Shown: positions 14,298 to 53,190 of the stretch, one piece after another
How positions within the stretch are numbered: the first letter of the stretch is position 1
How the letters are laid out: each line of letters begins with the position of its first letter
Origin: Halalkalicoccus paucihalophilus
GTDB lineage: Archaea; Halobacteriota; Halobacteria; Halobacteriales; Halalkalicoccaceae
Length of the DNA: 64,000 bases
NCBI RefSeq assembly: GCF_001593955.1
Contig: NZ_LTAZ01000001.1
Location: 62,001-126,000, forward strand
Direction of reading: 5' to 3'
Position numbers and translations under genes: made by a program
Notes under the pieces: generated by a model
Told to the model about the DNA's origin: nothing
Database searches by the model: none
What the model saw: only the letters and a program-made list of their open reading frames with translations

Positions 14298-15002
14298 ATG
14301 GAGACCATCGGAGAGCTGGTCGCCCGCGACCAGCGGACCCGCGAGCCGGCGTTGCGCGCACGAACGGGCGTTACCCTCCGGTACGACTACTATCAGCTCT
14401 GTACGACCGCCCAGAAGACGGGCAACTTCTTCAGTCATCGTGGGGTACGGACCGGATCGCTCGTCGGGGTCGAGAGCGCCGAGAGCGGCGCGCCGGTCCT
14501 CTCGTTATTCGGGGCGGCGCTGCTGGGCGCGCGGGTGCGCTTCGACCCGCCCCGTAAGACGGACGCCCGATTGCTGGTCGCGCCGAGCGAAGGAATCGAG
14601 GAGTACGCCCTTCCGGCGGGGGCGAGCCGACTCGCCTACGACGGCGAACCGGGGGTGGGAGTCGAGTCGTTCGGCGAGAGCGTCTGGAGCGAGAACCCCG
14701 CGTGTCCCACTCCGTCGGAAGTCGGCCCGGACACCCCGTTTCTCGAAACCGAGGACGAGACCTACACCCACGGGCAACTGCTCGCGGCCACGGAACGGGT
14801 CGTTGACCGCTGGGGAATCGGACCCGGAACGGAAGTGGCGATCCGCACGCCGCTCTCGGAGCCGGAGGCAGTCGTAGCCGGGATCCTCGCACCGCTGTCT
14901 GCGGGCGGAGTGATCGTCTTTCCCGGCCCCGACGAGGCGGTCGATCTCGCCGTGGGCGAGGGGCCCGAATCGACCGTGATACCCCCCGACGGTGTCGTGT
15001 AA
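14298..15002 (+). CDS. Truncated AMP-forming CoA-ligase-like protein (N-terminal subdomain only)
   Basis: The 234-residue protein begins METIGELVARDQRTREPALRAR. The blocks LRYDYYQLCTTAQKTGNFFSHRGV, GSLVGVE and FGAALLGARVRFDPP, and the repeat-like ETEDETYTHGQLLAATERVV, resemble the N-terminal subdomain of ANL-superfamily acyl-CoA synthetases. The phosphate-binding P-loop, the TGE/YGxTE region and the C-terminal lid domain are all absent, so it cannot be a full adenylating enzyme. It follows dnaJ by 47 bp on the same strand. I know of similar stand-alone proteins in haloarchaea, so it is probably a conserved family and not decay. Its function is unknown. Confidence 0.7.
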   Translation: METIGELVARDQRTREPALRARTGVTLRYDYYQLCTTAQKTGNFFSHRGVRTGSLVGVESAESGAPVLSLFGAALLGARVRFDPPRKTDARLLVAPSEGIEEYALPAGASRLAYDGEPGVGVESFGESVWSENPACPTPSEVGPDTPFLETEDETYTHGQLLAATERVVDRWGIGPGTEVAIRTPLSEPEAVVAGILAPLSAGGVIVFPGPDEAVDLAVGEGPESTVIPPDGVV

Positions 15003-36502: not shown

Positions 36503-36569
36503 GTCTTGCGCGCTCGTAATGTACCCATCGTAATGATTGTTCCCGTTTACGTCCGACGCGCGTCGGACC

Positions 36570-50611: not shown

Positions 50612-51757
<1,146 letters not shown>

Positions 51758-51759
51758 CG

Positions 51760-51939
51760 TTACACCTTCGCCCACGGACGATCGGTTCCCTGGGCGTCCT
51801 GGCTCACGCCCCGTTCGTCGAGCATCTCCCGAACCGCGGCGCGAATCGCCTCGCTGCGGTTGGGGAACTGCCCCGTTTCGACCATCCGTTCGACCTCTTC
51901 TATCTGTTGTTCTGGAATTCGAAGTGTCACACGTTCCAT
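51760..51939 (-). CDS. cdrS: CdrS-like ribbon-helix-helix cell division regulator
   Basis: This 59-residue RHH protein has an N-terminal strand [12 protein letters not shown], helices [29 protein letters not shown] (the FPNRSEAIR turn is classic RHH/CopG) and the tail [17 protein letters not shown]. Size and location match CdrS of Halobacterium and Haloferax, which is co-transcribed with ftsZ2 and regulates division genes. The 2-bp junction to ftsZ2 indicates one transcript. Palindromic sites lie just upstream, suggesting autoregulation or control by the RHH protein encoded further upstream. Confidence 0.93.
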
Positions 51940-51955
51940 GGTATCTTCCCCTGGC

Positions 51956-51993
51956 GTAAGACGAAGGTCGTAGTTGCGACCTTCGTGTCTTAC
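51956..51993. promoter_or_regulatory. Inverted repeat upstream of cdrS-ftsZ2
   Basis: GTAAGACGAAGGTCG (51956-51970), a TAGTTG loop, then CGACCTTCGTGTCTTAC (51977-51993) form a long inverted repeat with a two-base bulge. Its outer ends are GTAAGAC and GTCTTAC, the same half-sites as the second palindrome 50 bp upstream. On the minus strand TATGTAAG (about 51991-51998) could be a TATA element. The repeat is a candidate RHH operator or an mRNA hairpin in the leader. Confidence 0.6.
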
Positions 51994-52039
51994 ATAGCAG
52001 CCAGACCCGCCCCATCCGTGACGAGTCGATGGCTAGCAC

Positions 52040-52055
52040 GTAAGACGTGTCTTAC
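52040..52055. promoter_or_regulatory. Palindrome GTAAGAC-GT-GTCTTAC upstream of cdrS
   Basis: Perfect 7+7 half-sites are separated by two bases. A TTTTAATA TATA-like element lies at about 52081-52089 on the minus strand, so the expected start of transcription (about 52058) abuts this palindrome. This is a natural position for a regulator controlling the cdrS-ftsZ2 promoter. It shares GTGTCTTAC with the inverted repeat at 51956-51993. Confidence 0.65.
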
Positions 52056-52108
52056 ATGACCATAGCGTGCTCCCACGAACTATTAAAACTACCGGCCGAT
52101 GTAGGACA

Positions 52109-52603
52109 TCAGCGGTCGAGGACGTCGGCAGCGGGGGTTCGGCGGCCACAGTTCGGGCAGAACGCCCAGTCGGTACGGAGTTCGTCGCCACACTCACAGA
52201 CCGCGGGGGTGTCGGCCTTCTCACCGCAGTTCGGACAGTAAACGTGGTCCGAATCGACGGTTTCGCCACACTGGACGCAGTGACGGACGTGCGAATGTTC
52301 GTATCCGACGTGTTCGTCCGTTTGCACCGCCCGCTCCGACCCGTCGGAATGGCGTATACGGTCGTCCTCGACCGTGACGGTGACGTTTACGTCGGGAGCG
52401 AGCCGGTCGTCGAGGTGCTCGGCGATGCGCCGGTCGATCCGGTCGGTGATGAGCGTATCGAGCGAGTCCGATTCGGGAGGGGACGGTGGGGCGACTCCGA
52501 GGTACGCACGGAGCGCCTCGCGCATGACCTCGCTCTTCGAGGCGTCCATCGCCTCGATCCGCGCGACGAGGTCGTCGTCCGCGCGGAAGGTTATCTTGCT
52601 CAT
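52109..52603 (-). CDS. CdrL-like regulator: ribbon-helix-helix plus double zinc ribbon
   Basis: This 164-residue protein has an N-terminal RHH domain (SKITFRADDDLVARIEAMDASKSEVMREALRAYLG, residues 2-36), an acidic/helical middle and two C-terminal zinc ribbons: CVQCGETVDSDHVYCPNCG and CECGDELRTDWAFCPNCG. It lies upstream of cdrS-ftsZ2 on the same strand, the position of the long RHH regulator (CdrL) described for haloarchaeal division control; the name is from memory. GTTAAAATACC about 28 bp upstream of ATG 52603 is a clear TATA box for a leaderless mRNA. It is a candidate ligand of the GTAAGAC palindromes. Confidence 0.88.
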   Translation of the reverse strand: MSKITFRADDDLVARIEAMDASKSEVMREALRAYLGVAPPSPPESDSLDTLITDRIDRRIAEHLDDRLAPDVNVTVTVEDDRIRHSDGSERAVQTDEHVGYEHSHVRHCVQCGETVDSDHVYCPNCGEKADTPAVCECGDELRTDWAFCPNCGRRTPAADVLDR

Positions 52604-52878: not shown

Positions 52879-53190
52879 TCAGTTCCCGTCGGCGGCCAGT
52901 TCATCGGCCCCGATCTCCTCGGCGAGATAGGCCGCGCCGCGCTCGGCCAACCGATACTCGTCGGGCCCACCCGCGAGCAGGTCACGGATCGCGAGCTGCC
53001 GGCAGCGATCGGCGACGTACTCCTCGCTCTTTTCGAGGTTGGCAGCGATCTCGGCGGGCGTCGCCGCCCCGCCTCCCTCGAGCAGGGCCATGATCCGCTC
53101 GTCGGTGTGGGTCATCCAGTCGATCCGCAGGCGAGCCTCCTGTTCCCTGAACCCGCCGCGCAACAGCCGCGAGAGGAGTCCGTCGCTCAT
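52879..53190 (-). CDS. Winged-helix DNA-binding protein (PhiH1 repressor-like)
   Basis: This 103-residue wHTH protein has WMTHTDERIMALLEGGGAATPAEIAANLEKSEEYVADRCRQLAIRDLLAGGPDEYRLAERGAAYL, with a clear helix-turn-helix (ATPAEIAANLEKSEEYVADRC) and wing. It resembles the phage PhiH1 repressor-like/MarR-like proteins common in haloarchaeal genomes. There is no metal-binding or effector domain. It is a single gene between tRNA-Tyr and an M24 peptidase gene. No other phage genes or att-like repeats are visible, so a prophage origin is not supported here. Confidence 0.8.
   Translation of the reverse strand: MSDGLLSRLLRGGFREQEARLRIDWMTHTDERIMALLEGGGAATPAEIAANLEKSEEYVADRCRQLAIRDLLAGGPDEYRLAERGAAYLAEEIGADELAADGN

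What the first reader, a model, noticed from the sequence alone, without database searches (positions are those of the whole stretch)
51940..52108. GTAAGAC/GTCTTAC palindromes in the cdrS-ftsZ2 promoter
A perfect GTAAGAC-N2-GTCTTAC site abuts the expected start of a TTTTAATA promoter, and a longer inverted repeat with the same ends lies 50 bp downstream. The genes on both sides encode RHH proteins (CdrS-like and CdrL-like). RHH dimers bind short inverted or direct repeats, so these are probable operators of the division regulon. The shared half-site gives a concrete motif for a genome-wide search.
Basis: partly seen in the sequence, partly recalled or inferred. Interest (0 to 1): 0.7.

Follow-up and report, generated by a model that had tools for sequence, protein, structure and literature searches.

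The report
Division-gene operator conserved across haloarchaea
Short mirror-image DNA sites in front of the archaeal cell-division genes cdrS and ftsZ2 occur essentially once per genome in nearly every salt-loving archaeon sampled, and are very probably the switch through which a dedicated regulator (CdrL, perhaps sharing with CdrS) controls division; related methanogens carry a one-letter variant of the same site.

Summary
GTAAGAC-GT-GTCTTAC lies at 52040-52055, and a 38-bp inverted repeat with the same ends at 51956-51993, between cdrL and the cdrS-ftsZ2 operon (all on the minus strand). A degenerate third box (GTCCTAC, 52101-52107) sits 52 bp upstream of the palindrome, at a spacing conserved across the class.

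The palindrome is an operator, not chance. It occurs in 377 of 392 Halobacteria genomes, almost always exactly once; all 29 sampled hits lie in front of cdrS. So it marks one locus, not a "division regulon". The wider regulon uses a sister box, GTCNGAC-N4-GTCNGAC, found at ftsZ1 in 15 of 15 genomes and at hisB, both published CdrS ChIP targets. In methanogens, where I found no CdrL, cdrS itself carries GTCNGAC boxes on an exact 11-bp lattice.

Best reading: an ancestral CdrS autoregulatory operator that diverged by one letter per box in haloarchaea, where CdrL now occupies it. Published ChIP-seq places CdrL only there. Complication: one genus seems to have lost CdrL (none in 96% of one genome) yet keeps the palindrome, so CdrS may bind it too. 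Binding and the direction of regulation are not shown here.

The parts
52101..52107 (-). Site 1 box, degenerate (GTCCTAC on the minus strand), upstream of the TATA box
   Evidence: Centre exactly 52 bp from the site 2 upstream box; a box with <=1 mismatch at the conserved offsets (51-54 or 61-66 bp) in 113/121 loci versus 1/121 at control offsets.
52081..52088 (-). TATA box TTTTAATA of the cdrS-ftsZ2 promoter
   Evidence: Sequence; TATA starts 32-36 bp before the centre of the site 2 upstream box in 112 loci where one was called.
52040..52055 (.). Site 2: GTAAGAC-N2-GTCTTAC palindrome at the expected transcription start
   Evidence: exact in 121/130 distinct haloarchaeal loci with N2-N6 spacer; one per genome in nearly all of 392 genomes.
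51956..51993 (.). Site 3: GTAAGAC-N24-GTCTTAC in the 5' leader next to the ribosome-binding region
   Evidence: start-codon-proximal box exact in 125/130 loci, other box exact in 81 of 121.
51961..51986 (-). Hairpin inside site 3 (10-bp perfect stem, 6-nt loop)
   Evidence: interior structure only weakly above chance across loci, so lineage-specific.
52109..52603 (-). cdrL: RHH plus double zinc ribbon, 164 aa; predicted main occupant of the boxes
   Evidence: Pfam RHH_1, DZR, zinc ribbons; DNA-facing strand K3-T5-R7 invariant in 141/141 orthologs.
51760..51939 (-). cdrS: RHH, 59 aa
   Evidence: Pfam RHH_1; R3-T5-R7 invariant in 147/147 haloarchaeal and in the aligned methanogen orthologs.
50612..51757 (-). 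ftsZ2, directly behind cdrS
   Evidence: 86-90% identical to FtsZ2 of other haloarchaea.
36551..36568 (.). Sister box pair GTCCGAC-N4-GTCGGAC upstream of ftsZ1: inferred CdrS operator
   Evidence: equivalent pair at <=1 mismatch upstream of ftsZ1 in 15/15 genomes.

Best explanation
The palindromes are a three-site operator of an RHH repressor or homeostat controlling the cdrS-ftsZ2 promoter. The unit is a 7-bp box, YGTAAGACR with its flanks, which one RHH dimer is expected to read with its beta-ribbon. Site 1 lies upstream of the TATA box, site 2 (two boxes about one helical turn apart) covers the expected transcription start, and site 3 lies in the leader beside the ribosome-binding region. 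In haloarchaea the main occupant is CdrL, encoded directly upstream; occupancy would block initiation and early elongation and so set the level of CdrS and FtsZ2. The site descends from a CdrS autoregulatory operator with the sister box GTCNGAC, still present in methanogens. In haloarchaea CdrS keeps GTCNGAC at ftsZ1 and other targets, while the cdrS promoter diverged. Shown here: sequence, conservation, single-copy occurrence, geometry and the sister-box distribution. Inferred: which protein binds, that binding represses, and the evolutionary direction.
For: 377/392 Halobacteria genomes carry GTAAGAC-N2..5-GTCTTAC, nearly always one copy; all 29 sampled hit loci have cdrS directly downstream. 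Published CdrL ChIP-seq in Hbt. salinarum finds the cdrS-ftsZ2 upstream region as the only reproducible site (PMC7439475), matching one site per genome. CdrS ChIP-seq in Hfx. volcanii lists 18 sites without its own promoter (PMC8406309); of those targets, ftsZ1 carries GTCNGAC pairs in 15/15 genomes, dacZ in 9/20 at <=2 mismatches, psmB only in Haloferax, and an exact-pair scan of a Haloferax genome recovers ftsZ1 and hisB among 5 hits with 0 reversed-control hits. Box density is 21/kb in the 200 bp before haloarchaeal cdrS against 0.23/kb elsewhere in the loci. In 24 distinct methanogen loci GTCNGAC is 100-fold enriched before cdrS with spacings 11, 22, 33, 44, 55, and the CdrL_M family was not found in 30 such genomes. 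Recognition-strand residues are fixed and differ: K3-T5-R7 in CdrL, R3-T5-R7 in CdrS. Site 1 has the same box outside the transcribed region at fixed spacing, which favours DNA-level recognition.
Against: No binding data for this motif were found. One complete genome (G016) appears to lack CdrL (none in 2.0 of 2.086 Mb) yet keeps the dyad; G010 and G011 have the same locus without adjacent cdrL. Those three lack site 1, against 5 of 118 others, but they represent only two lineages. Spacers of 2-6 bp are a wide range for two dimers meeting on DNA. CdrL_M also misses the window's own CdrL, so its absence in methanogens rests partly on the literature. The direction of regulation is not shown: cdrL is co-expressed with the operon under stress, and the published cdrL deletion carried second-site mutations.
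Confidence: 0.65

Rival explanations
1. CdrS is the main occupant everywhere: a negative autoregulatory operator of cdrS-ftsZ2, with CdrL a haloarchaeal accessory that joins or competes.
For: Methanogens, where no CdrL was found, have boxes at the same place; G016, which appears CdrL-less, and two more loci without adjacent cdrL keep the exact dyad; CdrS is the only RHH gene always next to the site.
Against: CdrS ChIP-seq in Hfx. volcanii does not list its own promoter, although that experiment used plasmid-expressed tagged CdrS; the other haloarchaeal CdrS targets examined use GTCNGAC, which is absent from the 200 bp before cdrS in 129/147 loci; CdrL ChIP finds the site.
Confidence: 0.25
2. 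The repeats act as RNA: leader hairpins at sites 2 and 3 control translation or stability of the cdrS-ftsZ2 message.
For: Both sites lie in the predicted leader; the window's site 3 folds into a strong hairpin; the published H. salinarum data suggest post-transcriptional control of the operon (PMC8303175); spacers of 2-6 nt could be hairpin loops.
Against: Box sequence is invariant rather than compensated; the site 3 interior is only weakly structured (32% of loci at p<0.1 against 15% in a control window); site 1 has the same box upstream of the TATA box; sister boxes at ftsZ1 sit near the promoter at a CdrS ChIP target.
Confidence: 0.06
3. Another conserved DNA-binding factor, not an RHH protein of this locus, uses the sites.
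For: No binding experiment on the motif exists in the papers searched.
Against: CdrL ChIP-seq result; relatedness of the box to GTCNGAC found at CdrS ChIP targets.
Confidence: 0.04

Closest known systems
CdrSL regulatory circuit of Halobacterium salinarum (PMC7439475)
   Same: Same genes in the same order; CdrL binds the region upstream of cdrS-ftsZ2 as its only reproducible genomic site.
   Different: The main text names no motif (0 occurrences of 'motif' or 'palindrom'). This work supplies a specific box, three-site geometry, class-wide conservation and lineages that seem to lack CdrL; [quoted passage not shown]
CdrS regulon of Haloferax volcanii (PMC8406309)
   Same: RHH regulator with a symmetric motif upstream of ftsZ1, dacZ, psmB, hisB; sister-box pairs are found at ftsZ1 and hisB, and partly at dacZ and psmB.
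   Different: The motif is shown only as a figure logo, which I could not read, so GTCNGAC-N4-GTCNGAC is inferred; the cdrS promoter box differs by one letter (GTAAGAC).
Arrayed operators of RHH proteins (pSM19035 ParB/omega heptads, PMC9499535; AvtR and SvtR of archaeal viruses, PMC5569661)
   Same: Short boxes repeated along DNA, with cooperative oligomers; AvtR represses its own gene.
   Different: omega heptads are contiguous 7-bp repeats; here boxes are on an 11-bp lattice (methanogens) or in three spaced sites (haloarchaea).
NikR (RHH, PDB 1q5v, 2bj1)
   Same: Among the closest solved sequences to CdrS (E 0.02-0.04) and among the fold hits.
   Different: CdrS is only the RHH domain plus a short tail, without NikR's metal-binding domain; its sites and setting are unrelated to nickel.

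Membership tests
RHH_1 / CopG-Arc-MetJ regulators (CdrS, CdrL) | N-terminal ribbon-helix-helix domain | tested here: met
   PF01402 above cut-off for both: E=1.1e-9 (CdrS), 7e-5 (CdrL); top fold hits for CdrS are RHH proteins but weak (best E=0.06).
CdrL-cdrS-ftsZ2 circuit | Gene order cdrL-cdrS-ftsZ2, with CdrL carrying RHH plus double zinc ribbon | tested here: met
   CdrL recognised upstream of cdrS in 141/147 haloarchaeal loci.
CdrL-cdrS-ftsZ2 circuit | CdrL bound to the cdrS-ftsZ2 upstream region | not testable with these tools
   Published for Hbt. salinarum only (PMC7439475).
CdrL operator (proposed here) | Single genomic site, at cdrS | tested here: met
   377/392 genomes with the dyad, nearly all exactly one; all 29 sampled hits at cdrS.
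CdrL operator (proposed here) | Absent where CdrL is absent | tested here: inconclusive
   Not seen in methanogen cdrS upstream regions, but retained in G016, which appears CdrL-less.
CdrS regulon box (GTCNGAC pair) | GTCNGAC boxes 11 bp apart at the cdrS promoter | tested here: not met
   0 GTCNGAC in 200 bp before cdrS in 129/147 haloarchaeal loci; met in methanogens.
Structured RNA leader | Compensatory changes in stems | tested here: not met
   Box stems invariant in the 121 loci with an exact site 2 (by construction of that set; exceptions mostly break pairing); interior of site 3 only weakly structured. No formal covariation model was built.

The most novel reading that the evidence does not exclude
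A division-gene operator changed hands: an ancestral CdrS autoregulatory array (GTCNGAC, 11-bp lattice) became, in the haloarchaeal ancestor, a one-letter-different box read by a new RHH protein, CdrL (strand residue K3 where CdrS has R3), freeing CdrS to run a separate regulon with the old box. This would be a natural case of paired repressor-operator divergence at the core of archaeal cell division.
Probability: 0.45. Interest if true: 0.78.

Novelty: new variant of a known kind. Interest (0 to 1): 0.62.

Why it matters
Control of archaeal cell division is poorly understood, and the CdrS-CdrL circuit was known without a CdrL operator sequence in the papers I could search. The finding gives exact boxes to mutate in model strains, predicts one CdrL site per genome, separates the CdrL site from the CdrS regulon by one letter, and points to natural lineages that seem to lack CdrL in which to test who binds. 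If the handover reading holds, it is a clean example of how paralogous regulators acquire separate operators.

Tried and rejected
'Division regulon operator' was rejected, since the dyad is single-copy and sits only at cdrS. Chance palindrome was rejected on conservation. Second dyad copies in G243 and G367 (L145, L148) lie away from cdrS, and one sits inside a longer unrelated palindrome. Correlation of spacer length with the CdrL recognition strand: none, the strand is invariant. Conserved RNA hairpin in site 3: weak signal only. CdrL_M Pfam as a marker is insensitive: it misses the window's own CdrL. AlphaFold models are monomers and do not form the dimeric ribbon; the CdrL model has low confidence (pTM 0.30). 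Papers searched gave no published GTAAGAC motif; subscription journals and bioRxiv are not held. Two haloarchaeal genomes (G192, G173) entered the methanogen pattern search by mistake and were ignored.

Full report
Observation. The palindrome GTAAGACGTGTCTTAC is at 52040-52055 and the 38-bp inverted repeat at 51956-51993. All genes read on the minus strand: cdrL (52603-52109), the 169-bp gap, cdrS (51939-51760), ftsZ2 (51757-50612). Pfam gives RHH_1 for both regulators and a double zinc ribbon for CdrL. On the coding strand both sites share the 12-mer ATGTAAGACACG. In the window genome the dyad is unique at up to 1 mismatch. Other single boxes occur in the window only at 14554 and 34284.

Conservation. 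Eighty cdrS loci from named haloarchaea all carry GTAAGAC/GTCTTAC boxes before cdrS. In 147 loci (130 distinct upstream regions) the exact dyad with a 2-6 bp spacer is present in 121 of 130. Of the nine others, those I read keep one exact and one altered half, such as GTAAGAC-N5-GTCATAC or GTGAGAC-N4-GTCTTAC. No other 7-bp dyad recurs in more than 5 loci, apart from a frame-shifted reading of the same one. Across 392 genomes of the class, 377 have the dyad with a 2-5 bp spacer, two genomes have two copies and the rest one; the reversed pattern hits in two genomes. Of the 15 genomes without it, 12 gave a cdrS locus and all of these carry boxes or the N6 form. All 29 loci returned by the pattern search have cdrS directly behind the dyad.

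Architecture. Box centres of site 2 are 11 bp apart in 95 loci, 12 in 13, 9 in 7 (as in the window), 13 in 4 and 10 in 2. The TATA box starts 32-36 bp before the first box centre, so site 2 overlaps the expected start of transcription (inference from typical archaeal TATA-to-start spacing; not mapped here). Site 1 (up to 1 mismatch) lies 51-54 or 61-66 bp upstream in 113 of 121 loci, against 1 of 121 at control offsets; in the window it is GTCCTAC at exactly 52 bp. Site 3 has a start-codon-proximal box, exact in 125 of 130 loci, and a second box, exact in 81 of 121. The interior hairpin of site 3, striking in the window, is only weakly supported elsewhere. The extended box is YGTAAGACR.

Sister box. 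CdrS ChIP-seq in Hfx. volcanii reported 18 sites, including ftsZ1, dacZ, psmB and hisB, but not cdrS itself (PMC8406309). Upstream of ftsZ1, 15 of 15 haloarchaeal genomes carry GTCNGAC-N4-GTCNGAC with at most 1 mismatch, 14 of them 54-58 bp before the ATG taken as the start; dacZ has it in 9 of 20 at up to 2 mismatches and psmB only in Haloferax. An exact scan gives 3 hits in the window genome (ftsZ1 at window 36551 among them), 5 in one Haloferax genome and 7 in another, with 0 control hits; ftsZ1 and hisB are among the Haloferax hits. I therefore infer that GTCNGAC pairs are the CdrS operator. The published logo was not readable here.

Outside Halobacteria. In 24 distinct methanogen loci GTCNGAC occurs at 11.0/kb in the 200 bp before cdrS against 0.11/kb elsewhere; pair spacings fall on 11, 22, 33, 44 and 55 bp with almost nothing between. 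Genome-wide the near-exact pair is at cdrS in 1/1, 1/1, 1/1, 3/3 and 3/4 of the hits in five methanogens and 0/4 in a sixth; four others had no hit. The CdrL_M family was found in 0 of 30 such genomes, although this model also misses the window's CdrL; the literature likewise restricts CdrL to Halobacteria.

Who binds. CdrL ChIP-seq in Hbt. salinarum has a single reproducible site, upstream of cdrS-ftsZ2 (PMC7439475), which fits one dyad per genome. The strands expected to face DNA are K3-T5-R7 in 141/141 CdrL and R3-T5-R7 in 147/147 CdrS and in the aligned methanogen CdrS; that these residues contact DNA is knowledge of the RHH family, not tested here. Against CdrL as sole binder: G016 has cdrS-ftsZ2 beside tRNA-Tyr with no cdrL between, no CdrL ortholog in 2.0 of 2.086 Mb, and still one dyad; G010 and G011 show the same locus. 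These three loci lack site 1, against 5 of 118 others, which fits partial decay after CdrL loss, but only two lineages are involved. I give CdrL as main binder 0.65 and CdrS 0.25.

Mechanism. Inferred: RHH dimers on adjacent boxes, with site 2 over the transcription start and site 1 upstream of the TATA box, most simply repress or buffer cdrS-ftsZ2. RHH proteins of archaeal viruses act by such cooperative arrays, and AvtR represses its own gene (PMC5569661). Activation from site 1 is not excluded. Direction, affinity and signal remain unknown.

Verdict. A real, class-wide operator in a known circuit. The motif, the three-site geometry, the single-copy rule and the relation to a sister box in methanogens and at ftsZ1 were not found in the papers searched.

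Noticed in passing
window 36551-36568: GTCCGAC-N4-GTCGGAC immediately upstream of ftsZ1, conserved in 15/15 haloarchaeal genomes at a nearly fixed distance from the start codon: inferred CdrS operator.
   Followed up: yes
L162, L163, L157 (G016, G010, G011): Haloarchaeal cdrS-ftsZ2 loci without adjacent cdrL (tRNA-Tyr lies upstream instead); no CdrL found in 96% of G016, contrary to the published statement that CdrL is in all sequenced Halobacteria.
   Followed up: partly
L165-L194 (methanogen cdrS upstream regions): GTCNGAC boxes on an exact 11-bp lattice along the cdrS leader, suggesting CdrS coats its own leader DNA.
   Followed up: partly
L281 (G000:C1:11793) and L287 (G000:C4:400918): Two further exact GTCNGAC pairs in the window genome; L281 lies just before an uncharacterised ORF (MGLGGFLPGMTTISIDDEG...). 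Possible further CdrS targets.
   Followed up: no
window 52879-53190: 103-aa ORF upstream of the tRNA-Tyr gene with a weak winged-helix match (HTH_AsnC-type, below cut-off).
   Followed up: no
L031 and L040: The Haloferacaceae archaeon XH8 chromosome record carries the cdrS locus twice, near both ends, with cdrL in two frames in one copy; likely an assembly overlap.
   Followed up: no
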